A DNA stretch of 64,000 nt from Oscillospiraceae bacterium. GTDB taxonomy: Bacteria > Bacillota > Clostridia > Oscillospirales > Oscillospiraceae. The DNA is taken from the NCBI GenBank assembly GCA_017458065.1, contig JAFTGD010000010.1, positions 108,183-172,182 on the forward strand. The letters are read 5' to 3'. Below, piece after piece: positions 49,528 to 62,817 of the stretch. A program made the translations under genes and the position numbers. Every line of letters starts with the position of its first letter. Within the stretch, counting starts at the first letter, position 1. The notes under the pieces were generated by a model that was not told where the DNA came from, searched no databases, and was given only the letters and a program-made list of their open reading frames with translations.

Positions 49528-50378
49528 CCCCGCCACGGCTTTCGCAGGACCACGCTGCCGTGGAGATCGCAGACCGGCATCGGGAGGATCCCCTTCTCCC
49601 TGCAGAATTCCCGCACGGCCTTACCAGCGCCGGTATACTGCGTGCTGTTCACATCGTGGACCAGCAGCACGCCGCCGGGGGACAGGCGATCCCAGAAAAG
49701 GGGCAGCGCAGCCGCCGTGGGTGCGTACAGGTCCGCGTCGACCGAGACGAAAGCAAAGGTCTTCTCCATGCAGCTGCGGAAGGTCGCCGGGAAGTATCCC
49801 TTGTGGAACACGGCCCGATCCCGATAGAGCAGGCGCTTGTCGACAATGTCCTTGGCCGTCTCGGCAAAGTCCCCTGTCTTCGCTTTGGAAAAGCCCTGTG
49901 CCTGCTCAATCTCCACATCCTTTGCCGGGAAGCCCTCGAAGGTATCAAACAGATGAATGGTCCGATCCGGGAACGCCGCGTTGATAAGCACGGCAAAGTC
50001 GCCCCGAAATACGCCGAGCTCCGCCACATCGCCGGGGATCTTCTCCTCACGGATCTGCTCCGCCAGCAGGCGCATGGTAGCCACACGCGCATCAAAGGTC
50101 TTCAGGGCATCCGGCCGCAGAATCGGTCCGTCAAAGCCCAGTTCACGGATCTGCCGTTCCATCTGCCCTGCTCTTTCAGCATCCAGCACACAGAGGCAGA
50201 AGCAGTCCGGATCAAAGAGCAGACTCTCCTTCGGCGAGACCACGGGGATCCCGGCGAGCATCGTGCCCCATTTTGCCTCATAGTTATCCGCGAAACAGGA
50301 GATGGCATACCCCGTTCCGATCAGCCGGGAAATCATCGCCCCGAACTGTCCCGCGCCAAAGAGTACTACGGTTTTCAT
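49524..50378 (-). CDS. TylF/MycF-type O-methyltransferase with N-terminal Rossmann region
   Basis: The 284-residue protein has two parts. Residues 1-95 form a nucleotide-binding-like unit (VVLFGAGQFGAMISRL, then CFADNYEAKWGTMLAGIPVVSP). Residues 105-280 match the TylF family: VAELGVFRGDFAVLINAAFPDRTIHLFDTFEGFP (about 119-152 in parts), the metal-binding FVSVDADLYAPT, and VHDVNS. TylF-type enzymes methylate sugar hydroxyls using SAM and Mg2+. Target unknown. It is chained by four-base overlaps to the trigger-factor-like gene and the MATE gene. Confidence 0.88.
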   Translation of the reverse strand: MKTVVLFGAGQFGAMISRLIGTGYAISCFADNYEAKWGTMLAGIPVVSPKESLLFDPDCFCLCVLDAERAGQMERQIRELGFDGPILRPDALKTFDARVATMRLLAEQIREEKIPGDVAELGVFRGDFAVLINAAFPDRTIHLFDTFEGFPAKDVEIEQAQGFSKAKTGDFAETAKDIVDKRLLYRDRAVFHKGYFPATFRSCMEKTFAFVSVDADLYAPTAAALPLFWDRLSPGGVLLVHDVNSTQYTGAGKAVREFCREKGILPMPVCDLHGSVVLRKPWRG

Positions 50379-51490
50379 ACTGTCGGCTCCTTTGCATGCT
50401 CCACGATAAAGGCCCTGGCCTTGTCCCGCAGAAGCTGTTCGCGGATGGGCTGTTCCTCTACCTGAGCCATAACCTCTTCCAGTTCAAGGCCGGTCTCATC
50501 GGCGATGTCCTGGTACACCTGCATCAGCTCCGCCTCGCTGAAAGTGAGCTGTTCCTGCTCCGCCACCGCGTTCAGCAACAGGTCAAACCGTGCCGCGTCT
50601 CTCGCCCGCTCGGTGTTGTTCTCCTTCCAGAGGCCCACTGTCTGTTCCACGGAGCCGAGATACGCCTCAAAGGCCTCTTCGATCTTCTCATCATCCGTCA
50701 TAGCGCGTTTTTTCTCGCCGCGCTCGGCAATCAACCGGTCAATGGTTTCATCGAAGCTGCGAGGGACGATGCGGTAGTGTTCCACCAGCTCGCGGATCAA
50801 TTCGTGGAACTTATCCTGAGACAGCTCCTTGTTGTCCCCGGATACGGTCTGCAGCATGACATCCAGCGCCTCTGCCTGGACCTGAGCTTTCGGCCGGTAG
50901 ACGTCCGTCTCTTTATAGGCCTCCTCCAGAACCGCGGTGAAATCCGCCAGCAGATGGTAGATGGCATCCTGGCCGATCTTCATCTTCTCCCGCGCCAGCA
51001 TGGCTTCCAGTTTCTGGCTGACCATGGCCTGAGGCACTTCCGCTTCCATATTGCGGCAGGCCGCGAGCAACGCTTCCGCGGTGAACATCTCTTTATCCTC
51101 GCAGGAGGCTTTTACTTCCACACCCTGATACGCGCCAAGCTTCACCTCCGGGTACACATCACAGCGGACGGTGAACCTTGCCCCGCCCCCTTCCATCCAG
51201 GTGACGGAAGTCAGCTGCGGACGGCCCACCGGACGGATCCCGTGCTCAGAAAGGTATTGGCCGTAGAGCTTCGGGACGCAGAGATCCAGCGCTTCATCGA
51301 AAAGCGCCGTTTCACCGTAGAGCTTTTCAATCTCCGCTCTGGGTGCAAGCCCCGCCGCATAGCCGGGCACAACAATTTTGTCCGTGTTCTCAATATAGGC
51401 TTCTTCCAGCGCTTTCCAGAACTCCTGCGGTTCGATGCGGATCTCCACCGTATGGACTCCGTTCTCCGTATGGGAAGCAAGTATGATCAT
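50375..51490 (-). CDS. Trigger-factor-like chaperone lacking the PPIase domain
   Basis: The 371-residue protein aligns to trigger factor at both ends. The N-domain has PRAEIEKLYGETALFDEALD (about 60-79); the ribosome-contact loop, usually GFRxGxxP, reads GYAAGLAP. From about residue 140 it goes straight into the helical C-terminal chaperone arms (AMVSQKLEAMLAREKMKIGQ), with no FKBP-like PPIase insertion. AAGGAGG lies seven bases before the ATG at 51490. It may chaperone a specific client rather than nascent chains in general. It is followed by overlapping TylF and MATE genes. Confidence 0.82.
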   Translation of the reverse strand: MIILASHTENGVHTVEIRIEPQEFWKALEEAYIENTDKIVVPGYAAGLAPRAEIEKLYGETALFDEALDLCVPKLYGQYLSEHGIRPVGRPQLTSVTWMEGGGARFTVRCDVYPEVKLGAYQGVEVKASCEDKEMFTAEALLAACRNMEAEVPQAMVSQKLEAMLAREKMKIGQDAIYHLLADFTAVLEEAYKETDVYRPKAQVQAEALDVMLQTVSGDNKELSQDKFHELIRELVEHYRIVPRSFDETIDRLIAERGEKKRAMTDDEKIEEAFEAYLGSVEQTVGLWKENNTERARDAARFDLLLNAVAEQEQLTFSEAELMQVYQDIADETGLELEEVMAQVEEQPIREQLLRDKARAFIVEHAKEPTV

Positions 51491-51503
51491 CTCGAAACCT
51501 CCT

Positions 51504-51535
51504 TGAAAAATGGCATCAGCACCGCTGATGCCATT
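51504..51535 (-). terminator. Hairpin terminator or attenuator before the trigger-factor-like gene
   Basis: A perfect 12-bp stem (51509-51520 with 51524-51535). On the minus strand it is followed by a T-run and, immediately, the AAGGAGG site of the next gene. Confidence 0.75.
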
Positions 51536-51545
51536 TGCGATTATA

Positions 51546-51995
51546 TCATGGTTTCCCTGCGCCGACAATCGCTTTTGTCAGGGGGATGCCCGTGAAGATC
51601 CCAACCAGCGCGGACAGATAGACCGTCAGCAGCGCGACCGGATAGCAGGACCACCAGGCTCTGAAATAGTGGGGGCCGATGCCTGCGTTTACCGCCGTCA
51701 TCAGCAGGGTCATGATCGTCCCGAGAAACAGCGCCAGTACAATTGTGGAGACAACCGTGAAGAGCGGCGTGCCGGGCTTCAGGCCGAAGAGAGAGGCAAA
51801 TTTGCCGCCCCAGTTGACAACCGGGATCAGGAACACCAGGATCGTGCTGACGGTAAAGGCAATCAGAAAGCCTTTGATGAATGTGCCGAAGCTCAGCATG
51901 CCGACCAGCGCGGGCAGCACGATGCTGAGGACGACGTTGATGACGAACGAGATCCACAGATTCAGGATCACGTCAAATTTGGAATACTTCTTCAT
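51546..51995 (-). CDS. Four-helix membrane protein of unknown function
   Basis: The 149-residue protein has about four transmembrane segments: LNLWISFVINVVLSIVLPAL (about 11-30), GFLIAFTVSTILVFLIPVV (about 42-60), VVSTIVLALFLGTIMTLL (about 82-99) and LLTVYLSALVGIFTGIPL (about 122-139). The positive N-terminus (MKKYSKFD) and a basic end suggest both termini inside. I do not recognise a family; DUF2798-like proteins are a possibility. A hairpin with a T-run follows its stop at 51504-51535. Confidence 0.75.
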   Translation of the reverse strand: MKKYSKFDVILNLWISFVINVVLSIVLPALVGMLSFGTFIKGFLIAFTVSTILVFLIPVVNWGGKFASLFGLKPGTPLFTVVSTIVLALFLGTIMTLLMTAVNAGIGPHYFRAWWSCYPVALLTVYLSALVGIFTGIPLTKAIVGAGKP

Positions 51996-52153: not shown

Positions 52154-52804
52154 TCAGCAGACGAGCTTTTCTTCCTTTCCGCATTCGCACTTGGCGGAGG
52201 CGATCACAAGGACGTCCGGGTGCTTTGCCTTAAAAGCCTCGACGCCCGCTTTCAGGGCGGCTTTTGCCTCATCATCCCTGCAGAGCGCACCGTATTCGAG
52301 GACCTCAGCCCCGCTCTCCAGCATAGAGGTCAGCTTCTTTTCCACACAGCCCTCGCAGAAGCCCTCTTCCGTGCACCAGGAAGCGACGACCAGCTTGTTT
52401 CCGGCATGCGCATGTTCTACGTTGGACTGAGCCGCGTCCAACTCGTCATACCATTCCACGGTGATGAGATCGCCGGCGCCGGAATCAATGGCCAGGTTGT
52501 TCAGTCTGCTGTGATACATGCAGGTGGTGGGATGCGCTCCTCCGATTCTCTTGTCCCGGAAGGTGTACATCAGGATCTTGTCGCCCAGCGCTTTCCGGAC
52601 TGCCGCAATGGCCTCCGGCATCTTCACAAAACGGATTTCGAAAACGTCCTCGTACTCGTCAACGCGCCATTCGACGGCGTCGACTGACGCATCCTTTGCC
52701 AGTTCTTCTGCCTTGGCAATGACGTCCTCAAGACGGTGTTCCCGGATGACAGCGATCCTGCTGCCGGCTCTCAGGCTGTGATTGCGGATTTCGATGCTCT
52801 TCAT
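52154..52804 (-). CDS. Type I dehydroquinate dehydratase-like protein, catalytic residues apparently lost
   Basis: The 216-residue protein keeps landmarks of the type I dehydroquinase barrel: DAVEWRVDEYED (about 43-54, normally the substrate-binding EWRxD) and LMYTFRDKRIGG (about 79-90, normally TFRxxxEGG). The strand that should end in NHDF reads VVASWCTEE (about 139), and the strand carrying the Schiff-base Lys (IIKIA) reads VLEYGAL (about 166). The protein is also Cys-rich and ends CECGKEEKLVC. It may be a repurposed barrel or metal-binding protein. ATG at 52804, 13 bases after the previous gene, with GAGG upstream; last gene of a six-gene operon. Confidence 0.65.
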   Translation of the reverse strand: MKSIEIRNHSLRAGSRIAVIREHRLEDVIAKAEELAKDASVDAVEWRVDEYEDVFEIRFVKMPEAIAAVRKALGDKILMYTFRDKRIGGAHPTTCMYHSRLNNLAIDSGAGDLITVEWYDELDAAQSNVEHAHAGNKLVVASWCTEEGFCEGCVEKKLTSMLESGAEVLEYGALCRDDEAKAALKAGVEAFKAKHPDVLVIASAKCECGKEEKLVC

Positions 52805-52817
52805 TTCTTTCACCTCA

Positions 52818-53180
52818 TCAGTTATTATTGGTATTCGCTCTTCGAAAAACGGTCAGCACATTGCGGCCGTATTTGAATTCAAAGGAAATCTCGTCCATAT
52901 GGGAACGTGTAAAACTCTCCTCCCCGCTTGGACAGGGATTGTAGATCGGTCCCGCGTGCATCATCTGCACGGCGCTCCCCGAGGCGGTGTTTTCAACGCT
53001 TACGATCAGGCTCCCAACGCCGCCGTCGGCCTTCAGCAGTCCCGGCAGCATCTCGTCCAGGGACGCGAGGATGTCCGCCCTGCCCTCTTCGCTGCAGGCA
53101 GAATTTTGCAGTCCGGCGCTGACATATTTCTTTACCCGCGCCGGCATCTCTTCATCGACCGCAGTGTTCAGCTTTTCCAT
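52818..53180 (-). CDS. Unrecognised 120-residue protein in the MoxR/VWA operon
   Basis: Soluble protein beginning MEKLNTAVDEEMPARVKKYV and ending in FEFKYGRNVLTVFRRANTNNN (in two parts). There is no signal peptide, membrane segment or known motif. Two ATG codons in a row occur at the start; the second (53180) has the better distance (five bases) from GGAGG. It lies 10 bases after the preceding gene and 13 before the next. I cannot assign a family. Confidence 0.65.
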   Translation of the reverse strand: MEKLNTAVDEEMPARVKKYVSAGLQNSACSEEGRADILASLDEMLPGLLKADGGVGSLIVSVENTASGSAVQMMHAGPIYNPCPSGEESFTRSHMDEISFEFKYGRNVLTVFRRANTNNN

Positions 53181-53190
53181 CATGCCCTCC

Positions 53191-53700
53191 TCACATGATG
53201 ACAACGACTTCGTTGCCGGTCTTAAAACTCATATATTCCCGGTGTCCGTTCAGCAGCGTTTTGACATCGCTCCCGGCGCAGGGGACTCCGATGGAGATCC
53301 CGTCAAACAGTCTCGCCAGCAGCTGCATGCGGAACTTGTCCTCCGGGTAATACTGGATCAGCGGGATCGTGCTCTCTGTCCCCAGCCGCGGCACCACATG
53401 GACCAGATGCGGCAGCATCGCAAGCTCCGCCAGCGTCAGCTCCTCCGGGTCTCCGTAGACGGTGTCGTCGCCTCCGCGTCGGTTCTCCGGCAGCGGATGG
53501 AAAAAGTGCAGCTCGCCGCCCTCGTTGTATGCCGCGCCGATGATGCGCTGCAGTCGGCCGTATTCCGCCCGGATGAAGGCCGCCTTCTCCTCTTCAATCA
53601 CCGGAAGAAGCATCTCCTTCTGCAGCGCCGCCAGCTCTGCGGGGCTCTTCCCTTCCGCCGCGTTCAGATAATCGCTGTATGCGCTCTGTTTTCCGTTCAT
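53191..53700 (-). CDS. Unrecognised 169-residue protein in the MoxR/VWA operon
   Basis: Soluble protein starting MNGKQSAYSDYLNAAEGKSP, with a helical first 55 residues and a probable beta-rich remainder (LHFFHPLPENRRGGDD, about 64-79; VPRLGTESTIPLIQYYPEDKF, about 102-122 in parts). No known motif or signal peptide. GGAGGAG precedes the ATG. It lies 15 bases downstream of the MoxR ATPase and is likely translated from the same message. It could be an adaptor of the ATPase; this is inference from position. Confidence 0.65.
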   Translation of the reverse strand: MNGKQSAYSDYLNAAEGKSPAELAALQKEMLLPVIEEEKAAFIRAEYGRLQRIIGAAYNEGGELHFFHPLPENRRGGDDTVYGDPEELTLAELAMLPHLVHVVPRLGTESTIPLIQYYPEDKFRMQLLARLFDGISIGVPCAGSDVKTLLNGHREYMSFKTGNEVVVIM

Positions 53701-53715
53701 GGCTCTTCTCCTCCC

Positions 53716-55233
53716 TTATACGTTCCAGTCCATCTCGTCGATGCGCTTCAGGATCTCCTGCTGGCGCTCCTGAAACTGCAGTTCCTTGTTGTGCAGATAA
53801 TACTTGTCACAGCCGTAATGCCCGATGAAGCGCGCGCTGTAATAGTTCACCGTGAGCTCCGTCACAAAAAGCAGCACCTCGTCCCCGTCGGCGAAGGCCT
53901 CCTCGCAGAAGCTGAAGGCGTTCTCCAGCGCCCTGGAACCCGCAGCCGCCTGCGCTTTGAGATCCGCCACCTGCTTCCCAAAGGCCTCCCGCACCAGCTG
54001 GAAAGCGCCTTCGCCTTCCGTGCGGCCCTCTTTCATCAGCAGCGCGCGGAAGTTATCCATCATGCGGAGCATGCGCTTGACCTCGCGCTGTGCCTGCGGC
54101 GAGACGGAGGCTGCCCGCTGGCCGGCGGAGAGCTTCTCTTCCTGCCGTGCGACATGTTCTTCCAGCAGACGCAGGACATCGGTTCTCCCCTCGCCCAGCT
54201 CCTTCTTCACTCCCCGGAGCTCTCCCGTTGTGAGGTCCAAGACATTCTCCTGTTCGCACACTGCGCGCAGCCTTGCCGTCACGCCGTCAAATAGCAGCCC
54301 CAGCAGGCTCAGCCGCTCGTCCATCCCGGCCCTTCCGGCGCGGAGGACGATGCTCTCACTGACCGTCCCGTCCAGGATCTGCTCCACCTGATAGTCGCTG
54401 CGGTATTTGTTGAACAGGTCGTAATAGATGGCAAAATCCTTGGCGATCCTCGGGTCCTGGAGATACTGGACGATGAGCTTCTCATCGACGTCAAGCCCGT
54501 TTTCCTCATAGAGATGGATCATCTCGCTGAGGTCGTCCCAGCCGCGCGCTGTGACGAAGCGCTTGCCGTCAACGGCGTTCTCCACCTTGTAGAAGTCTTT
54601 TTTCCTCGCCGCGAGGTAGGTCATAACCGAGGCGTGTACCCCCTTGCGATAGGCATATTCCTTCCAGACCTCGTAATCCGGCTCAATGTCAATGCGCTTG
54701 AGACGGTCCCAGGTCACCACGTCGAAGTCCCGGACCGACTTGTTGTATTCCGGCGGGTTGCCCGCCGTCACCAGGATCCAACCGGAAGGAACCCTGTGCT
54801 GGCCGAAGACCTTGTACTGCAGAAACTGCAGCATGCAAGGCGCCAGCGTCTCGGAGACGCAGTTGATCTCATCCAGAAAGAGGATTCCTTCCTTCAGTCC
54901 GGTTTCCCGCATCAGGTCATAGATGGCGCCAATGATCTCACTCATGGTGTATTCCGACACCTGATAGCTCCTGCCGCCGTATTCCTTCTCCGTGATGTAC
55001 GGAAGACCCAGGGCGCTCTGGCGCGTATGGTGCGTCATCGAATAGGACACCAGGCCGACCCCAAGCTCTGAGGCAATCTGCTCCATGATGGCCGTCTTGC
55101 CGATCCCCGGCGGGCCGATCATGAAAACCGGTCTCTGCTTCTCAATGGGAATGCGGTAGGCGCCGAACTCGTCCTTGGTGAAATACGCCCGCATTGCGGA
55201 TTTGATCTGCTCCTTTGCCTCTGCGATGTTCAC
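53716..55233 (-). CDS. MoxR-type AAA+ ATPase
   Basis: The 505-residue protein has an N-terminal AAA+ module: Walker A GPPGIGKTAIME (about 38-49), pore-type loop near HHTRQSALGLP, Walker B GILFLDEINCV (about 113-123) and sensor 1 LVTAGNPPEYN (about 149-159), as in MoxR/RavA/CoxD proteins. The C-terminal 230 residues are helical and Glu/Ala-rich and have no known domain. Start is GTG at 55233 after GGGGAAG. MoxR ATPases usually act with VWA proteins in the maturation of enzymes or complexes; a VWA gene is two genes upstream. Confidence 0.88.
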   Translation of the reverse strand: MNIAEAKEQIKSAMRAYFTKDEFGAYRIPIEKQRPVFMIGPPGIGKTAIMEQIASELGVGLVSYSMTHHTRQSALGLPYITEKEYGGRSYQVSEYTMSEIIGAIYDLMRETGLKEGILFLDEINCVSETLAPCMLQFLQYKVFGQHRVPSGWILVTAGNPPEYNKSVRDFDVVTWDRLKRIDIEPDYEVWKEYAYRKGVHASVMTYLAARKKDFYKVENAVDGKRFVTARGWDDLSEMIHLYEENGLDVDEKLIVQYLQDPRIAKDFAIYYDLFNKYRSDYQVEQILDGTVSESIVLRAGRAGMDERLSLLGLLFDGVTARLRAVCEQENVLDLTTGELRGVKKELGEGRTDVLRLLEEHVARQEEKLSAGQRAASVSPQAQREVKRMLRMMDNFRALLMKEGRTEGEGAFQLVREAFGKQVADLKAQAAAGSRALENAFSFCEEAFADGDEVLLFVTELTVNYYSARFIGHYGCDKYYLHNKELQFQERQQEILKRIDEMDWNV

Positions 55234-55254
55234 AGCGTTACTTCCCCTCTGTCG

Positions 55255-57201
55255 CTATATGTCATATTTTTCGAAAATATCCTCATTCTCCAGCCCGCTG
55301 CCGCGGTAGTCCAGCAGCAGGGCGACAATCTCCATCGCGCGGGACCGCTGCGCCTTCTCCAGCACGCTGGCGTGCTCCTCCTGACCGATCAGCCGCTTCG
55401 CCGTAAAGTAGCGGACCGCATCCGGCATATTCCGATCAATGCAGGCTTCCAGAATCCGGACGGTGTTCCCGCGCATCCAGTCCTCATAGGCTGCCGCTTT
55501 TTCCGGCGTATAGCTGTCCGCCCGGCGGCAGTAGCCGATCACCGCCGAGACCCGTTCCTTCTCCGTCTCAAACTGTTCCGGAAGCATGCCCGGCGCTATG
55601 ATGGATTCGAGACTGTCACAGTCCCGGAGCGGGTTGCCGCCCAGCGTGCGGATTCCTTCGGGAAGACGGAGTTCCTTCATTCCCCGGCAGCCTGCAAAGG
55701 CCTTCTCGCCAATTGCTTCCACCGTATCCGGCACCGTCAGGAACAGGATCTGCGGCTTATCTGCAAAAGCGCCCGATGCGACGGCACGGGCAGACCGCGG
55801 AACACGGATATCAGTCCTCGGCTCGATGCAGCCGTAGCAGACTCCGTCCAGGATCACATAGCCCTCTGCGTCGGCGAGGCCCGCACATCCGTCAAAGGCC
55901 CCCGCGCCGATTACTGTCACGTTCTCCGGAACAGTCAGCGTCCGGAGCGACCTGCACCCGGCAAAGGCTTCCCTGCCGATGCGCTCCGTCATCGGCGAGA
56001 GCTTGAGCTCCTCCAGCGCCAGGCAGTTCTTCAGCGCCCGATCGCCGAGCACGGTGAGACTCTCCGGCAGGCGGAGGCGCTTCAGGCTTCTGCAGTCGCC
56101 CAGCGCCCTTCTCCCGAGAGAGACGAGGCCCTCTTCCAGAGTGAGTTCTTCCAGTCCATCGCAGCCAAAGAAGCTGTCGTCCGGGAGCGTTCCGACGGTG
56201 CCGGGCACCTTCATCTGCCGGAGCAGCCTGCAGCCGGAGAAGACGCTCTCTCCCATTGTGCGCAGACTTTGAGGCAGGTCCGCCTGCCGTAGGGTCCTGG
56301 CTCCGGCAAAGGCCCGGTTTTCCAGCGTTGTGAGGCCATCCGGGAGCTTTGCCTCCTCCAGGGAAATGCAGCTGTAAAAGGCGTCCACACCGATCTTTTC
56401 CAGTCGGCTCGGGAATTCGACCTTCCGGAGGTTTTCGCAGCCGGAGAAAGCCCGCTCGCCGATCATGACGGCCTTGTCCCCGATGGTCACGGTCTCGATG
56501 TTGTTGCTGCCGAAGAAAGCCCAGCCGGGAAACTTTCTCAGGCTGTCCGGGAAGCGGACCTGCCTCAGGGAGCGGCAGTTTGCAAAAATGCCGTTCTCGA
56601 TCTCCTCCACGCCCTCTTCAAATTTCGCTTCGTTCAGTCTCGCGCAGCCCTTGAAGCAGTGCCAGCCGATCCGCCGGACCCCCGCCGGGATGTGCGCCGC
56701 GGTGAGGGCGGAACAGTCGGAAAAGGCTCTCCACCCGATATCCGCCACGCTCTCCGGGATTTTCAGCTCCCGCAGCAGAACGCGCTCATTGAAGGCGTCC
56801 GCTGCAATGGACAGGGTCCCCTCCGGGATATCGGCAACGCGGATGTTGCGCCTGGCTTTGAAGAGGACCCTTCCCAGAAAGAGGAAATCCTCCTTCCACT
56901 CGGTCTCGTTTTCGTTGTAGTACCGGTAAAAAGGCGTGCCTGCAAAGGCATCCGGTCCGATCAGGCACAGGCTCTCCGGCGCGGAGACCTTCTTCAGGTT
57001 GGCGCACCACTGAAAGGCTTCGCTCTCGATCCGTTCCAGGTTTGGAGGAAGAATCAGTTCTTCCACATCCCGGCAATCCCGAAAGGCGCCTTCTCCGATC
57101 GCGGTGACCTCTTCCGGGATCTCCGGCCAGGGGCTGTGTCCCCGGTACTTCAGGAGCCTGCCGTTTTCAATTTCAAAATCGTCCGTCATATCCTTGTTCA
57201 T
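55255..57201 (-). CDS. BspA-type leucine-rich repeat protein (LRR_5)
   Basis: The 648-residue protein is made of about 20 repeats of 22-24 residues with the pattern AF-x-GC-x-x-L-x-x-[LV]-x-[LIV]-P-x-x-[LV]-x-x-IG, for example AFRDCRDVEELILPPNLERI, AFSGCENLRKVEFPSRLEKI and AFAGCRSLRTLTVPENVTVI. There is no signal peptide, unlike surface BspA proteins, so it is probably cytoplasmic. The last 110 residues are helical and repeat-free. It overlaps the VWA gene by four bases. As part of the operon it may be a scaffold or recognition subunit. Confidence 0.88.
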   Translation of the reverse strand: MNKDMTDDFEIENGRLLKYRGHSPWPEIPEEVTAIGEGAFRDCRDVEELILPPNLERIESEAFQWCANLKKVSAPESLCLIGPDAFAGTPFYRYYNENETEWKEDFLFLGRVLFKARRNIRVADIPEGTLSIAADAFNERVLLRELKIPESVADIGWRAFSDCSALTAAHIPAGVRRIGWHCFKGCARLNEAKFEEGVEEIENGIFANCRSLRQVRFPDSLRKFPGWAFFGSNNIETVTIGDKAVMIGERAFSGCENLRKVEFPSRLEKIGVDAFYSCISLEEAKLPDGLTTLENRAFAGARTLRQADLPQSLRTMGESVFSGCRLLRQMKVPGTVGTLPDDSFFGCDGLEELTLEEGLVSLGRRALGDCRSLKRLRLPESLTVLGDRALKNCLALEELKLSPMTERIGREAFAGCRSLRTLTVPENVTVIGAGAFDGCAGLADAEGYVILDGVCYGCIEPRTDIRVPRSARAVASGAFADKPQILFLTVPDTVEAIGEKAFAGCRGMKELRLPEGIRTLGGNPLRDCDSLESIIAPGMLPEQFETEKERVSAVIGYCRRADSYTPEKAAAYEDWMRGNTVRILEACIDRNMPDAVRYFTAKRLIGQEEHASVLEKAQRSRAMEIVALLLDYRGSGLENEDIFEKYDI

Positions 57202-58823
57202 CTGTCAGACAGGTTCTCAATGTCCGTCTGGGTCATCCGGATTTTAATTGCCCAAGGCGGGATATCCGGCAGTTCCCGGCCATTGTCAACAAAGACAAAG
57301 GCAGCCTCATACTTGGGCGGCATCGGCGGGAACGTGCCGTAACCGTCAGTAAAGTAGATCAGGCCTTTCAGGTTTGTAAATTCGTGCTGGCGCAGCAGCG
57401 CGGCCACATGGTCGAACACCGGGCGAAAATCCGTCCCGCCGAAGCCCCGCAGCACCATGCGCCGCATATAGGCGTCAAACTCGTCCTGGTTTGTGATCTT
57501 CGCGTCTTCTTCCACCCGGGCTCCGCACTGCAGGATATGGACGTTCACCGTGGTGAAAAAGTTTTCCGTCTGCTTGAGGATGTTCCAGGTCTTGGTTACA
57601 AAGGTCTGGATCAGTTCACCCGCCACCGATTCCGAAGTGTCCAGCGCGATGACAAATTCCCGCACTCTCTGGACCTCTTTGTATTCCAGCGGCTCGATCA
57701 GCGGCATCCGGTCATAAAGCTTCAGACCGTAGGTGTAGAAAATATAGTCAAACTCATCGTCGTTGACCTGCAGGTTCTCACCCAGGACGGCAAAGCGGCG
57801 CAGAAAGGCCGCGTAGTCCACCTTCTCGCGGTTGACCTCCTCCAGTGCGGCCACAAAATCGCCTGCGTTCTCACCGAAGGATGAGGACGCCGTATCCAGG
57901 TCGACCTGGATGCGCTCGCTGATGTCTTTCCACATCTGTTCGGTCTCCTGGGGAGACATGGCTTTTTTCTCTCCGGGGCGGTCGTTTTTGTCCCCGACCA
58001 TCCCCTCGCCGCTGTCGCCGCTGTCCCGCGTCTCGCCGGTGGCTCTGCCTCCGGAGGCGGTCTGCTCTTCCCCGTCCTCCTCTTCGGCATTCTCCGGATT
58101 CAGGCTATCCGTCCCCTCCGTGTCTCCGGGCTCCGGGTTACCGTCCGCGTCCTTCGGGTCGTCGCCGCGTTCGGCATCGTTCCCTCCCCCGACGGCCTCA
58201 GGCGCCTTGTACCAGATGCTGTGGTCGTCGGCATAGAAATAGGAGCGGATGCGGGAAACCTCCTGCGGAGGGAGATCCTGTTCCAGCAGCCAGCGGTAGA
58301 TCCTCTCAGCAGTGAGACGGGGCAGCTCCTCTTTGAGCTTTCGGATCAGCCAGTGCTGTTTTTCCTGCCGCTCGCAGTAGAGCGACTTGATATTCAGCTC
58401 GCTGATGACGTGCTCCACCGCAATATCGCAGGCAAGATCCCAGATCTCCGTGTTGATCTTCCTGCCTACAAAAAGATGCCGGAAAATGCAGTGCAGTGTG
58501 AGATGAAGATAATCCCTCGCAACGATCTCCCTCGCCTGGCGGAAGCTGCGGCAGATATGCAGGGAGTTGTAGTACAGAAACTGCCCGTCCGTTGCGATCT
58601 CCGGGGTGACATTCTCATCCCCCGGTACAAAGCGGACCAGGGCGGATTCCAGAAAGCGAAGATGGATGAGCAGCGTATTGCGTGAGAGCTTCAGGATCTC
58701 ACGGGCAAGCTCCGCCGCAGCGTTCGCCTGTTCCGTGTCCCGGTGATAGTCGGTCCGGGCTGCAAAACCGTGGGTTTTGCGCAGCTGCGCCGCGCTGATG
58801 TCCCATTCGTTTGTCCCGGGCAT
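57198..58823 (-). CDS. DUF2201/VWA domain protein
   Basis: The 541-residue protein has an N-terminal metallopeptidase-like region of the DUF2201 type (about 40-200) whose expected His-rich helix reads YLHLTLHCIFRHLF, lacking the Glu of an HExxH site. A highly acidic linker follows (about 205-290, rich in Glu, Asp, Gly). The C-terminal VWA-like domain has ALDTSESV in place of the DxSxS MIDAS (about 390-397) and later FTDGYG. ATG at 58823 is nine bases from GGAGG; another ATG two codons earlier is only three bases away. It heads the six-gene operon and is coupled to the LRR gene. Confidence 0.82.
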   Translation of the reverse strand: MPGTNEWDISAAQLRKTHGFAARTDYHRDTEQANAAAELAREILKLSRNTLLIHLRFLESALVRFVPGDENVTPEIATDGQFLYYNSLHICRSFRQAREIVARDYLHLTLHCIFRHLFVGRKINTEIWDLACDIAVEHVISELNIKSLYCERQEKQHWLIRKLKEELPRLTAERIYRWLLEQDLPPQEVSRIRSYFYADDHSIWYKAPEAVGGGNDAERGDDPKDADGNPEPGDTEGTDSLNPENAEEEDGEEQTASGGRATGETRDSGDSGEGMVGDKNDRPGEKKAMSPQETEQMWKDISERIQVDLDTASSSFGENAGDFVAALEEVNREKVDYAAFLRRFAVLGENLQVNDDEFDYIFYTYGLKLYDRMPLIEPLEYKEVQRVREFVIALDTSESVAGELIQTFVTKTWNILKQTENFFTTVNVHILQCGARVEEDAKITNQDEFDAYMRRMVLRGFGGTDFRPVFDHVAALLRQHEFTNLKGLIYFTDGYGTFPPMPPKYEAAFVFVDNGRELPDIPPWAIKIRMTQTDIENLSDR

Positions 58824-58990: not shown

Positions 58991-61429
58991 TCAGTCACGG
59001 GCGGGCAGCGGTGGCATGTTGGCAAACTTCTCGGGCAGATCCTCTGCGCCGAAAACGGTCTTGCCGGTCTTCTCATGCTCTCGGAGCGCGCGCCACAGCT
59101 TCTCCGGTGTGATGGGCAGCTCTTTCAGCGTGAGGCCGGTTGCATAGTTGATGGCGTTGCCGATGGCGGAGCCGACAGGCGCAGTGGAGCCTTCGCCGGC
59201 TTCCTTTGCTCCCATGGGGCCTTCCGGATCGTACTCGGAGCAGACAAAGGTCTTGATTTTCGGCATATCCAGCGCCGTCGGGAAGTGGTAGTCGCGGAAG
59301 GACGGATTCAGATGCTTGCCGTCCTTGTCATAGACGCATTCCTCATAGCAGGTAAAGCCAAAGCCCAGCAGGACCGAGCCTTCGATCTGGCCTTCCACTG
59401 CGCGGATATTCAGCGGGCGGCCGCAGTCGTGGCCGAAAGCGAAGTCGTCCAGCGTGACCGCGCCGGTCTCCATGTCGACGGTGACCTTGGCTGCGGAGGC
59501 GGAGAAGGAATACGCGGTGGCGTAGTTGCCGACGTTCTTGACATAGATGTCCTTGTCGCCTTCATGCGCGAAGGAACCGACGCCCGCGACGCAGCGGCCG
59601 AAGTTCTTCTCCTCATAGCCGAAGCAGGCTTCATTGTAGGAGATGTTCTTCTCGGGGTCGCCCTTGATGAAGACGCGGTGGTCCTTCATTGTGATATCCT
59701 GCGGCTTGCAGCCCCACTCCTCTGCCCAGTGGGAGAGCAGCTTGAACTTGGCGTCGCCGACGGCGCGGCGGCAGGCGTTGCCGCCCAGGAAGGTGACGCG
59801 GGAGCCGAAGGAACCGGCATCCCAGGGCGTTGCGGTGGTATCGGACTGGACCAGCTTCACTTCGTCCATGCGCAGGCCCAGCTCTTCCGCAACGATCATG
59901 GTCATGACCGTATCGCAGCCCTGACCGATGTCATTCGCGCCGGAGAAGACCACGGCGTAGCCCTCGCGGTTCAGACGGACGATGGTAGAGGAGGAGCAGT
60001 AATGCGGCGTCACAAGGACCGGGAAGCCGGTGCCGGACATGAAGCCGGAGCCGGAAAGGCCCACGCCCTGGCCACTGCCGATGGGATAGCGGTCGCGGTG
60101 TTTCCAGTCGATGTAGTCGGCGACTGCGACCATGCACTCGTCAAACTTGCAGCTTGTAAACTCCAGACCTGTGGGTCCGGTGTAATACGGGGTGATCTCG
60201 TTCATGCGGCGCAGCTCCAGCGGGTCGATGCCGAGGGCATTGGCGACCTCGTCCATGTGAATCTCATGGGCAAAGTGGACCTGGCAGGCGGAATAACCGC
60301 GCATGGCGCCGGAGGCGGGATGGTTGGTATAGGGGCGGCGCGCCGTCATATCGATGTTCTCAACCTTATAGGGGAAGGTCGCGCAGATCAAGGACAGGGT
60401 GTTGGCTGCGATACCGGAGCCGCCGTATGCGCCGCCGTCCAGGATGTGCTTGCAGCGCTTGGCCAGCAGCTTACCTTCCTTGGTAAAGGCCGACTCGATC
60501 TCAAAGGAGATGGGGTGGCGGGTACGCGTGCACATGAAGACCTCGTCGCGCTTCAGGATGCACTTGACCGGGTGTCCGGTCATCTGGGCAAATTTGCAGG
60601 GGCAGAGCTCGTGGGCAAAGACGTCCAGCTTGCCGCCGAAGCCGCCGCCCAGCATGGGCTTAATGACCCGGACCTGACTCTCGGGGACGCCGAGACCCCA
60701 TGCGATCCAATAACGGCTGACATAGGCGCCCTGGGTCGTGGTCCAGACGGTCCACTCGTTGTTCTCGTACTTGGCGACGGCGCCGTGGGGCTCGATGGCC
60801 GCGTGCACCATCTGCTGGGTTCGGTAATAATGCTTGTCGGTGTAATCCGCCTCGGCAAAGACCTTATCCGGGTCGCCGGCCTTCATCGTCGTGAAGATGG
60901 AGAGGTTGCTGGTGCCGGGATAGTGGATGGCAGGTGCGTCCGGCTGCATGGAGTAGAAGGGATCCAGAACAGGCTCGAGGACCTCGTACTCCACCTTCAC
61001 CAGAGCCGCAGCCTGGGTGGCGATTTCTTCGGTCGTAGCGCAGACGGCGGCGACTTCGTCGCCCACCATGCGGACCTTCTTGCGGCAGAGCGGTTCTTTG
61101 TCGGCCAGCTCCTTGAAGGCTTCGGGGTTGCCGAGGTTGTGGCCTTCGGGGAAGTCGGCGCCCGTCAGCACGCCCTTGACGCCGGGGAGCTTCAGCGCTT
61201 CGCTAAAGTCGATGCTCTTGATGAGCGCGTGGGCATAGGGAGAATGGACCAGCTTGCAATAGTACATACCGGGCAGGTCCACGTCGTCCGTATAAACAGC
61301 AGAACCGGTGACCTTGGCCTCGGCGTCGATGCGGATGTAGGCATTGCCCTTACCGGCCAACTCATAATCCTCCGGCTTTTTGTATACGCTCTCGATATCA
61401 GCGTAATACTCTTTCGACATAATCGCCAT
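58991..61429 (-). CDS. Xanthine dehydrogenase-family molybdenum-binding subunit
   Basis: This large subunit of a molybdenum hydroxylase has 812 residues. It contains KVTGSAVYTDDVDLPGMYY (about 40-58, in the entry domain), GGGFGGK (about 257-263, pyranopterin contact), GAMRGYSACQ (about 366-375) and the catalytic Glu in GPMGAKEAGEGS (about 736-747). The Cox-specific active loop with cysteine is not seen, so it is not a CO dehydrogenase. The substrate (purine, aromatic CoA ester, nicotinate or another) cannot be fixed. Its start overlaps the 2Fe-2S gene (TAATG), with AAGGAGG upstream. Molybdopterin cofactor is needed; moaA is at 26 kb. Confidence 0.92.
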   Translation of the reverse strand: MAIMSKEYYADIESVYKKPEDYELAGKGNAYIRIDAEAKVTGSAVYTDDVDLPGMYYCKLVHSPYAHALIKSIDFSEALKLPGVKGVLTGADFPEGHNLGNPEAFKELADKEPLCRKKVRMVGDEVAAVCATTEEIATQAAALVKVEYEVLEPVLDPFYSMQPDAPAIHYPGTSNLSIFTTMKAGDPDKVFAEADYTDKHYYRTQQMVHAAIEPHGAVAKYENNEWTVWTTTQGAYVSRYWIAWGLGVPESQVRVIKPMLGGGFGGKLDVFAHELCPCKFAQMTGHPVKCILKRDEVFMCTRTRHPISFEIESAFTKEGKLLAKRCKHILDGGAYGGSGIAANTLSLICATFPYKVENIDMTARRPYTNHPASGAMRGYSACQVHFAHEIHMDEVANALGIDPLELRRMNEITPYYTGPTGLEFTSCKFDECMVAVADYIDWKHRDRYPIGSGQGVGLSGSGFMSGTGFPVLVTPHYCSSSTIVRLNREGYAVVFSGANDIGQGCDTVMTMIVAEELGLRMDEVKLVQSDTTATPWDAGSFGSRVTFLGGNACRRAVGDAKFKLLSHWAEEWGCKPQDITMKDHRVFIKGDPEKNISYNEACFGYEEKNFGRCVAGVGSFAHEGDKDIYVKNVGNYATAYSFSASAAKVTVDMETGAVTLDDFAFGHDCGRPLNIRAVEGQIEGSVLLGFGFTCYEECVYDKDGKHLNPSFRDYHFPTALDMPKIKTFVCSEYDPEGPMGAKEAGEGSTAPVGSAIGNAINYATGLTLKELPITPEKLWRALREHEKTGKTVFGAEDLPEKFANMPPLPARD

Positions 61430-61917
61430 TATGCTTCAGCCTCCTTTGCCTTTGCGAGTTTCTTGGCGGCACAGTCGATCGCTTCCACGATCTTCACGTA
61501 ACCGGTGCAGCGGCACAGGTTGCCGGCGATGCCGTCGCGGATTTCTTCTTCGGTGGGGTTGGGATTCTCGTTCAGAAGGGACAGGGCGGACATGATCATG
61601 CCCGGAGTGCAGAAGCCGCACTGCAGAGCCCATTTGTCCATAAACTCCTGCTGCACCGGATGCAGAACGCCGTTCTTCTTCACGCCCTCAATGGTCGTGA
61701 TTTCATGTCCGTCCGCTTCCATAGCCAGCATGATGCAGGAGGGAACCGCTCTGCCGTCCAGGAGGATCGTGCAGGCGCCGCATTCGCCTTCTTCACAGCC
61801 ACGCTTGGTGCCGGTCAGATGCATCTCCTTGCGGAGGAAGTCCACCATCGTCATATTGACAGGGGCGAGAGCTTCCACAGGCTCTCCGTTGAGCGTGAAA
61901 TGAATGATTTTCTTCAT
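61429..61917 (-). CDS. Molybdenum hydroxylase 2Fe-2S subunit
   Basis: The 162-residue small subunit has two 2Fe-2S clusters. The N-terminal plant-type cluster motif is CEEGECGAC...C (about 41-62), and the C-terminal helical domain carries CGFC (about 101-104) and CRC (about 136-138). It passes electrons from the Mo centre to FAD. It sits between the FAD and Mo subunit genes and overlaps the latter. Confidence 0.95.
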   Translation of the reverse strand: MKKIIHFTLNGEPVEALAPVNMTMVDFLRKEMHLTGTKRGCEEGECGACTILLDGRAVPSCIMLAMEADGHEITTIEGVKKNGVLHPVQQEFMDKWALQCGFCTPGMIMSALSLLNENPNPTEEEIRDGIAGNLCRCTGYVKIVEAIDCAAKKLAKAKEAEA

Positions 61918-61935
61918 TGCTTTCGTCCTCCTTCC

Positions 61936-62817
61936 TTAGGCCTTCATGGTCTCAACCGCTTTGTTGATAGCGCGCTTGGTATAAACGCGGATCATATCAT
62001 AGCGGTACTCCGCCGAGGCACGCAGACTGCTTCTGGGGTTCATCTCCGCAGAGGCCTGCTCTGCGACCTTCTCGATGAGCTCATCCGTGAGCTCCCGGCC
62101 GATGATCATCTCTTCGGCCTTCTTCCCGCGGACGATGGTCACATCACCGCCGGCGACCGCAATACGGCAGTCGGCAACTTTTTTGCCGTCCATCTTCACC
62201 CAGGCCGCGACGCCGATGATGGCAAGGTCCATGGCTTTGCGGACCGCATGCTTGAAATAGGCGGAGCCCTCGCCGGACTTGAGCTCGGGGATGAAGATCT
62301 CGGTCACAAGTTCGCCTTTTTTCTTATCGGCGGCAATCTTCTTGAAGCCGGGCCAGAAGTCGTCCATGGCGACTTCGCGGGTCCCTTCTGAACTCTGGAT
62401 TTTGACCTTGGCGTTCATCGCAAGCAGGATCGCGCCGCAGTCGCCTGTGGGAGAGGCATTGCAGATGCTGCCAACCATCGTTCCCTTGCGGCGGACCTGG
62501 TTGGAACCCACATAATGGGCCGCCTGCGCCACGGCGGGCATCTTGTCCAGCACCACGGGAGAGGACTGGATATCAAAGAGCTTGGTATTGGCGCCGACAT
62601 AGAGGCCTTCTCCATCCACGAAGTCCAGTCTGGTGAGACCGGGGATCGTCTTGAGGTCGATGACCGTCTTCATTCCTTTTGCCACGTTCTTGGGGATCTG
62701 CAGGATCACATCGGTACCACCGGACATGACGACGCACTCGCTGCCCATGGAGACCATCAGTTGGGATGCCTCTTCCAGGGATTTGGCAGCGATGTAGTCA
62801 AATTCAGGTAATGCCAT
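61936..62817 (-). CDS. Molybdenum hydroxylase FAD-binding subunit
   Basis: The 293-residue medium subunit has VMSGGTDVILQIPKN (about 30-44) and GTMVGSICNASPTGDC (about 112-127), the two FAD-contacting motifs of the CoxM/XdhB family. It lacks the extra cysteine loop that carries a 4Fe-4S cluster in 4-hydroxybenzoyl-CoA reductase, which argues against that identity. GGAGG precedes the ATG. It is the first gene of the operon, downstream of a promoter with a dyad. Confidence 0.94.
   Translation of the reverse strand: MALPEFDYIAAKSLEEASQLMVSMGSECVVMSGGTDVILQIPKNVAKGMKTVIDLKTIPGLTRLDFVDGEGLYVGANTKLFDIQSSPVVLDKMPAVAQAAHYVGSNQVRRKGTMVGSICNASPTGDCGAILLAMNAKVKIQSSEGTREVAMDDFWPGFKKIAADKKKGELVTEIFIPELKSGEGSAYFKHAVRKAMDLAIIGVAAWVKMDGKKVADCRIAVAGGDVTIVRGKKAEEMIIGRELTDELIEKVAEQASAEMNPRSSLRASAEYRYDMIRVYTKRAINKAVETMKA

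What the first reader, a model, noticed from the sequence alone, without database searches (positions are those of the whole stretch)
52154..58823. Six-gene operon: DUF2201/VWA, LRR, MoxR AAA+, two unknowns and a dehydroquinase-like protein
Six genes on one strand are separated by -4, 21, 15, 10 and 13 bases, so they are almost certainly one message. MoxR ATPases with VWA partners are known chaperone-like pairs, and some MoxR/VWA sets are proposed conflict systems. Adding a cytoplasmic BspA-type repeat protein (a possible recognition or scaffold subunit), two proteins of no known family and an altered metabolic barrel is not a set I recognise. It is the best candidate here for an undescribed system.
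Basis: partly seen in the sequence, partly recalled or inferred. Interest (0 to 1): 0.8.

Follow-up and report, generated by a model that had tools for sequence, protein, structure and literature searches.

The report
Three-part ATP motor with swappable sensor
Gut clostridia and some relatives carry a recurring gene trio, an ATP-driven ring protein, its coupling protein and a repeat-rich recognition protein with a shared docking-like domain, that looks like an undescribed protein-remodelling or alarm machine; the other genes noticed beside it are local hitch-hikers.

Summary
The six minus-strand genes exist as described, with the stated spacings, but are not one conserved six-gene system. The conserved unit is the first three: a DUF2201 pseudo-metallopeptidase/VWA protein, an LRR_5 protein and a MoxR-like AAA+ ATPase. 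Among the 80 best GTDB loci, 50 are uncut around AAA: all 50 have VWA within four genes, and 46 have a third protein sharing a ~95-residue domain ("CT") that the Pfam scans did not recognise as a family. Gene order varies. CT is joined to LRR_5, ankyrin, DUF4132 or DUF6273 parts or stands almost alone, so it looks like the constant dock and the rest like exchangeable recognition parts. In 150 genomes of the family, CT occurs in 19 of 24 with strong AAA and 1 of 126 without; in this genome it occurs once although eight other LRR_5 frames exist. The catalytic Glu of HExxH is gone in 82 of 82 aligned VWA proteins that keep the three His; AAA motifs and MIDAS are intact. The 169-aa gene has relatives only in the nearest three loci, the ~120-aa gene none convincing, and the dehydroquinase-like protein lacks both catalytic residues. 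Best reading: a MoxR-VWA remodelling machine with a CT-docked recognition subunit; a conflict role is possible, unproven.

The parts
57198..58823 (-). Coupling protein: DUF2201_N pseudo-metallopeptidase domain (HLTLHCIFRH), acidic linker, DUF2201 VWA domain with MIDAS
   Evidence: Pfam; alignment A2; motif counts; VWA beside AAA in 21 of 21 uncut family loci and within 4 genes in 50 of 50 uncut GTDB loci
55255..57201 (-). Recognition protein: LRR_5 repeats followed by the CT domain, ending YDI
   Evidence: Pfam; CT HMM E 3.3e-22, residues 550-647; the only CT match in this genome
55258..55578 (-). CT domain (last ~107 residues of the LRR protein), proposed dock
   Evidence: alignment A3; HMM
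53716..55233 (-). MoxR-like AAA+ ATPase with a long C-terminal extension (505 aa)
   Evidence: Pfam; alignment A1; motif counts; 24 of 150 family genomes at E<1e-30
53191..53700 (-). 169-aa protein of no known family; clade-specific accessory
   Evidence: relatives only in L064, L065, L080, right after AAA (identities 34% and 31% for the first two); 0 of 149 other family genomes
52818..53180 (-). ~120-aa protein of no known family; local addition
   Evidence: no Pfam or NCBIfam match; one weak match (E 7e-4) in 149 other family genomes
52154..52804 (-). Degenerate type I dehydroquinase-like protein; local addition
   Evidence: DHquinase_I 68.5 bits; catalytic His and Lys columns hold Cys and Glu; not next to any other triad seen

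Best explanation
The first three genes encode a MoxR-VWA machine with a third component. Inferred mechanism: the AAA+ protein forms an ATP-driven ring; the DUF2201 protein couples it to a target through its VWA/MIDAS face, while its peptidase domain, which keeps the metal ligands but has lost the catalytic Glu, serves as a stator or holding domain. The third protein docks on this motor through the shared CT domain (often with a hydrophobic C-terminal end), and its LRR part (elsewhere ankyrin, DUF4132 or DUF6273) selects what is remodelled or sensed. Shown here: conserved linkage, rearranged order, motif states, CT constancy with changing partner domains, genome-wide co-occurrence. Inferred: complex formation, docking by CT, remodelling. 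The 169-aa gene is a clade-specific accessory; the ~120-aa gene and the dead dehydroquinase are local additions.
For: 80 best of 554 GTDB relatives read; 50 have at least 3 kb on both sides of AAA: VWA on the same strand within 3 genes in 48 and 4 genes away in the other two (L082, L114); CT protein within 5 genes in 45 (43 on the same strand), 46 with L064, whose gene my caller missed and which scores E 2e-18. Family sample: 27 loci with the window, 21 uncut, 21 with VWA, 17 with CT. Orders VAC, VCA, CVA and ACV occur. Co-occurrence in 150 family genomes, the window's included: AAA (E<1e-30) 24, CT 20, both 19, Fisher p 1.5e-18; the CT-only genome has VWA next door at a contig end. This genome: LRR_5 in nine open frames, CT once. 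CT nearly alone (120-180 aa) in three loci. Other partners: ankyrin, DUF4132, DUF6273; LRR-CT proteins with BRCT, DUF6273 or DUF4132. One locus (L070) has 8 CT proteins within 5 genes. C-terminal end [FY]x[LI]: 29 of 70 proteins with CT at the end against 10 of 1000 other frames. AAA-VWA distance correlation 0.77 (n=85), AAA-CT 0.69 (n=43), 0 of 999 permutations reach either. HxxxHxxxxH kept in 82 of 85, Glu in 0 of 82; HExxH in 5 of 6 other DUF2201_N loci. NorQD is the mechanical precedent (passages of PMC13036017 and PMC9976466).
Against: No structure prediction was available, so no interface was tested. The CT model was trained on triad proteins, so its frequency in those loci is partly circular (searches are the genome-wide tests). 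CT is not always terminal: 73 of 119 matches end within 15 residues of the C-terminus, 46 are internal. Four of 50 GTDB loci (L081, L090, L103, L125) and four of 21 family loci (L046, L057, L058, L060) have no CT found; five of 24 AAA genomes have none. Of three other full-length-AAA genomes in the phylum sample, one has CT adjacent (L210), one about 6 kb away (L211), one none seen (L212). The strict tail is in under half of CT proteins and its columns are part of the model. Part of the distance correlation reflects shared host descent. The target is unknown.
Confidence: 0.55

Rival explanations
1. A conflict (defence or self-killing) system of the MoxR-vWA ternary kind: LRR or ankyrin parts sense an invader and the motor sets a threshold for an effector.
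For: Same grammar as the published ternary systems: MoxR, vWA and a defining third component (PMC7159879, passages, section 8). Recognition proteins differ more than the motor (medians 39% against 69% in 108 pairs) and are tandemly multiplied in some loci. Patchy distribution: 24 of 150 in the family, 4 of 299 in the phylum sample with the window's own. A SIR2_2 gene lies between LRR and AAA in L078 and a WYL-regulator gene in the same run in L093.
Against: No effector domain found on the window's VWA protein, and no recurring effector among 40 extra genes in the same tight runs; only 12 of those 40 were scanned against Pfam or PADLOC. No PADLOC match of the six genes beyond P-loop resemblance. 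No close relative in IMG/VR or on plasmids. The seven phage-collection records with full-length AAA are unverified fecal contigs; the one read (L206) is surrounded by ordinary bacterial genes.
Confidence: 0.25
2. A maturation chaperone for a metal enzyme, as CoxDE is for CO dehydrogenase: here for the xanthine-dehydrogenase-type molybdenum hydroxylase encoded just upstream.
For: XDH-type genes (58991-62817) lie directly upstream; colinear and 75-85% identical for the Mo and FeS subunits in L064 and L080, with an 89% identical Mo-subunit end at the contig edge in L065. CoxD and CoxE mature such an enzyme (abstract of PMC4240915).
Against: XDH-type sequence is within the fetched flanks of only 8 of 108 loci, several of them distant; in L131 the genes are convergent. 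The trio is common without it. Clade synteny also includes a trigger factor and a methyltransferase gene, so plain inheritance explains it.
Confidence: 0.1
3. The CT/LRR proteins are clients folded or assembled by the AAA-VWA pair, not adaptors that direct it.
For: Same gene linkage would result; a clade-specific divergent trigger factor nearby fits a folding theme.
Against: Partner domains of CT are unrelated to each other and CT can stand almost alone, which suits a docking part better; not decisive.
Confidence: 0.2

Closest known systems
NorQ-NorD, CbbQ-CbbO, RavA-ViaA, CoxD-CoxE (MoxR AAA+ with VWA partner)
   Same: AAA+ ATPase plus a partner with an N-terminal domain, a charged linker and a C-terminal VWA with a DxSxS-T-D MIDAS
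   Different: DUF2201_N as the N-terminal domain, a longer AAA C-terminus, a linked variable third protein, no constant client enzyme gene
MoxR-vWA ternary conflict systems (VMAP, iSTAND, FtsH, beta-propeller, iSTAND2, TERNS3; Kaur et al. 2020, 2021)
   Same: MoxR-vWA core with a defining third component carrying recognition parts
   Different: Third component is LRR_5/ankyrin/DUF4132/DUF6273 with CT; VWA is of the DUF2201 type and bears no effector domain; found here in Clostridia and Coriobacteriia
DUF2201_N/DUF2201 putative metallopeptidase-VWA proteins with a short AAA partner
   Same: Same Pfam domains in the same order
   Different: Catalytic Glu lost in 82 of 82 aligned, AAA about 505 instead of about 335 residues (L062, L063), CT partner added

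Membership tests
MoxR AAA+/VWA couple | AAA+ with intact Walker A, Walker B and sensor 1 | tested here: met
   columns invariant or nearly so in 85 sequences
MoxR AAA+/VWA couple | VWA partner gene nearby, MIDAS kept | tested here: met
   50 of 50 uncut loci; MIDAS columns 83-85 of 85
MoxR AAA+/VWA couple | match to AAA_3 (MoxR-type Pfam model, recalled) | tested here: not met
   no match at this gene; AAA and AAA_5 match instead
MoxR AAA+/VWA couple | helix-2 insert and hexamer with the VWA finger in the pore | not testable with these tools
   structure prediction switched off
MoxR-vWA ternary conflict system (Kaur et al.) | third component is VMAP, iSTAND, FtsH or beta-propeller | tested here: inconclusive
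   Pfam shows LRR_5, ankyrin, DUF4132 or DUF6273 instead; VMAP and iSTAND profiles were not run as such
MoxR-vWA ternary conflict system (Kaur et al.) | effector domain typically C-terminal in the vWA protein | tested here: not met
   in the window the DUF2201 VWA match runs to residue 532 of 541-543 with nothing after it; other loci not scanned
DUF2201 metallopeptidase | Pfam match over the cut-off | tested here: met
   DUF2201_N 34.4 against 23.2 bits
DUF2201 metallopeptidase | HExxH catalytic glutamate | tested here: not met
   0 of 82; present in 5 of 6 other loci
CoxDE-like maturase | constant linkage to a client enzyme | tested here: not met
   XDH-type sequence at 8 of 108 loci
Type I 3-dehydroquinase | catalytic His and Schiff-base Lys (roles recalled) | tested here: not met
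   aligned to Cys and Glu against 4guf and 3m7w
Known anti-phage systems (PADLOC 2.0.0) | model match | tested here: not met
   only weak P-loop matches on AAA among the six genes

The most novel reading that the evidence does not exclude
A new class of ternary MoxR-VWA machine in gut Clostridia and Coriobacteriia, in which a constant, distantly ankyrin-like docking domain (CT) brings exchangeable LRR, ankyrin, DUF4132 or DUF6273 recognition parts to a motor whose peptidase has been turned into a holder: in effect a bacterial LRR-receptor motor that senses intruders or damaged complexes.
Probability: 0.35. Interest if true: 0.8.

Novelty: new variant of a known kind. Interest (0 to 1): 0.6.

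Why it matters
MoxR-VWA couples are common but few have known clients (recalled). This set has a linked, sequence-variable partner with a shared candidate docking domain, so adaptor exchange on an AAA+ motor becomes directly testable. It would also give a cytoplasmic role to some BspA-type LRR proteins, usually thought of as surface proteins (recalled), and it shows uniform conversion of a metallopeptidase domain into a pseudo-enzyme inside a presumed ATP-driven complex.

Tried and rejected
Six-gene system: rejected by neighbourhoods. Active dehydroquinase: rejected on catalytic residues. Weak second hits of the ~120-aa protein (L076, 20% identity, E 5e-5, about 6.5 kb from AAA; one family genome at E 7e-4): treated as chance. 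CT as a general LRR_5 tail: rejected, one of nine LRR_5 frames in this genome has it. Orphan CT proteins as clients in trans: three candidates off the known AAA contigs (G081, G050 contig 124, G042 contig 61) each have VWA beside them. CT against solved structures: nothing significant, best being ankyrin designs at E 0.07; Pfam Ank_2 overlaps the CT region of L094, hence 'distantly ankyrin-like'. VWA profile against solved structures: no hit at E up to 1. AAA against solved structures: only general AAA+ matches at the P-loop. Phage carriage: 493 records match P0001, seven over at least 80% of it, all unverified 'Bacteriophage sp.' fecal contigs; I read one (L206): it has the trio among radical-SAM, DUF4130, NUDIX, M18 peptidase, DegV, Mur-ligase and aminotransferase genes with no phage-structure match except a weak one inside the NUDIX protein, so I take it as bacterial DNA; the other six were not read. 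A neighbour-wide defence-gene enrichment with a control was not done.

Rows dropped before counts: four loci with AAA identical to family-set loci (L073, L075, L116, L122; checked) were left out of the tail, identity and tree counts but not of the 80-locus counts; L062 and L063 (distant AAA) were left out of the family counts; loci with under 3 kb beside AAA were left out of the 'uncut' counts (30 of 80; 6 of 27). Over all 80 loci, cut ones included, 72 have VWA within 3 genes and 65 CT within 5. Rows with short AAA or VWA were left out (85 kept). Five of the 80 listed loci plus L064 have CT missing, wrongly so in L064.

Full report
Observation. Six open frames lie head to tail on the minus strand at 52154-58823 with spacings -4, 21, 15, 10 and 13. 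PADLOC shows only weak P-loop resemblance on AAA. The window lies on contig C63 of an unnamed 3.6-Mb genome in 83 contigs; the nearest named relatives of the AAA protein are clostridial metagenome bins, many from ruminants and other animals.

What is conserved. The AAA protein has strong relatives (E<1e-30) in 24 of 150 genomes of the family, the window's included; 43 of 150 match at E<=1e-3 with distant hits counted. The 169-aa protein is found in none of the other 149. I fetched 28 neighbourhoods and called genes with my own codon-usage script. VWA sits next to AAA and an LRR_5 gene is usually in the same run, in several orders. Of these, 50 have at least 3 kb on both sides of AAA: 48 have VWA on the same strand within 3 genes and L082 and L114 have it 4 genes away; 45 have a protein with the shared domain within 5 genes, 43 on the same strand, 46 with L064, whose LRR gene my caller missed but whose frame scores E 2e-18. 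Without it: L081, L090 (an LRR gene without a CT match), L103, L125. In the family set (27 loci with the window, 21 uncut) 21 have VWA and 17 CT; L046, L057, L058 and L060 do not. Named relatives include Pseudoflavonifractor, Oscillibacter, Ruminococcus, Parablautia and, outside Clostridia, Paraeggerthella and Slackia, where the CT gene is on the opposite strand. In a sample of 299 genomes of the phylum four, the window's included, have a full-length AAA. Of the other three, all have VWA next to AAA; one of another class (L210) has CT adjacent, L211 has it about 6 kb away and L212 shows none.

The third component. Reading the ends of the LRR proteins showed a shared region of about 95 residues, often with a hydrophobic end such as YDI, FDL or YEL (alignment A3). 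Its HMM finds 119 proteins in the fetched loci; 73 matches lie within 15 residues of the C-terminus and 46 are internal. In three loci (L047, L055, L056) the third slot holds this domain alone or with about 80 extra residues. In others it is joined to ankyrin repeats (L077, L087), DUF4132 (L110, L082, L086) or DUF6273 (L097, L112), and some LRR-CT proteins also carry BRCT (L037, L082), DUF6273 (L093) or DUF4132 (L114, L069). L070 holds eight such proteins within five genes of AAA. In this genome CT occurs once while LRR_5 occurs in nine open frames. In the 150 family genomes CT is in 20 and strong AAA in 24, both in 19 (Fisher p 1.5e-18). The exception, G081, has VWA beside CT on a contig that ends inside VWA, so AAA may lie beyond; the two other CT hits off the AAA contigs (G050, G042) also have VWA beside them. 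The end [FY]x[LI] is in 29 of 70 proteins with CT at the end and 10 of 1000 other frames; a looser form in 54 of 70 and 136 of 1000. The model includes these columns, so the contrast is somewhat inflated.

The motor. Walker A, Walker B, sensor 1 and the TxDR columns are invariant or nearly so in 85 sequences. The protein has about 505 residues against about 335 in the distant relatives L062 and L063. The MIDAS columns hold in 83-85 of 85. The DUF2201_N half keeps three histidines in the HExxH spacing in 82 of 85, but the position after the first His is never Glu (0 of 82). In six other loci found with the Pfam model, five show HExxH and L188 shows no such motif. So this is a uniform pseudo-metallopeptidase, probably still metal-binding (inference).

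Evolution. AAA and VWA distances correlate (r 0.77, n=85), AAA and CT too (r 0.69, n=43), with 0 of 999 permutations reaching either value; shared descent of the hosts contributes. In 108 pairs with AAA at least 66% identical the medians are AAA 69, VWA 60, LRR protein 39 and CT 39%. The last two mix paralogues and CT placements, so the faster change is indicative only.

The extra genes. In L064, L065 and L080 a relative of the 169-aa protein follows AAA; identity is 34% and 31% in the first two. In L065 and L064 the next gene is a trigger-factor relative, matching the divergent trigger factor at 50375-51568 of the window. The genome has a canonical trigger factor elsewhere (408 bits; the window copy gives 77 and 29 bits in two pieces). 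The simplest history is VWA-LRR-AAA-u169-TF with the ~120-aa, dehydroquinase-like and 149-aa genes added later in this lineage (inference). The dehydroquinase-like protein aligns Cys and Glu where solved enzymes have the catalytic His and Lys (catalytic roles recalled).

Mechanism. For NorQD, cryo-EM shows a VWA finger in the AAA pore and the NorD C-terminus on the ring, and the MIDAS is suggested to bind the client (passages of PMC13036017 and PMC9976466). Kaur et al. propose that the MoxR-vWA pair of ternary systems helps restructure the complex with the additional component (section 8 of PMC7159879). By analogy I propose that CT docks on the motor and that the repeats choose the target. Docking could be on the MIDAS, the pseudo-peptidase or the AAA extension; nothing here decides which. 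A conflict role is the main rival: the grammar fits, but I saw no recurring effector. Of 40 extra genes in the tight runs 12 were scanned: SIR2_2 lies between LRR and AAA in L078, DUF4760 directly before AAA in L070 (related genes in L074 and L114 by clustering), and a WYL regulator in the L093 run. A maturase role for the upstream XDH-type enzyme fits this clade but not most loci (8 of 108).

In print. Full-text searches for DUF2201, MoxR+vWA+ternary system (28), MoxR+leucine-rich repeat+von Willebrand (52), AAA ATPase+DUF4132 (53), VWA-like domain+MoxR (65), MoxR+LRR+AAA+VWA (66) and MoxR+BspA (82) listed no paper that by title and abstract start describes this set. In the main text of PMC7159879 'LRR' occurs once, in the search a reference-list item with LRRK2, and PF13203/PF09967 do not occur; the passages of PMC8195603 seen (12 of 17 places) name other third components. 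Subscription papers and preprints are not held and supplements were not searched, so this is not proof of absence.

Limits. Many loci come from metagenome bins. Gene calls are my own and missed at least one gene. Only the best 80 of at least 554 relatives were read. No structure could be predicted.

Noticed in passing
50375-51568 (-): Divergent second trigger-factor paralogue downstream of the set; relatives L064 and L065 have one just after the 169-aa gene, and a canonical trigger factor is elsewhere in the genome.
   Followed up: partly
58991-62817 (-): XDH-type molybdenum hydroxylase genes (Mo, FeS and FAD subunits) just upstream, colinear in L064 and L080, with the end of the Mo subunit in L065.
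   Followed up: partly
L078:7090-7995: SIR2-like gene inserted between the LRR-CT and AAA genes, an effector-like insert in the run.
   Followed up: no
L206 (MT835935.1): Unverified 'Bacteriophage sp.' fecal contig holding the CT-VWA-AAA trio among ordinary bacterial metabolic genes; six more such records have full-length AAA.
   Followed up: partly
L080: Record titled Deltaproteobacteria with a locus colinear with the clostridial clade (XDH-VWA-LRR-AAA-u169), so the bin label may be wrong.
   Followed up: no
L082:5926-7320 and L037:3076-5286: LRR-CT proteins that also carry a BRCT domain near the C-terminus, an unusual fusion.
   Followed up: no
L060:5764-10390: Divergent locus with a second AAA gene (IetA/TRIP13-like) overlapping the AAA-VWA pair and no CT protein found.
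   Followed up: no
   Followed up: no
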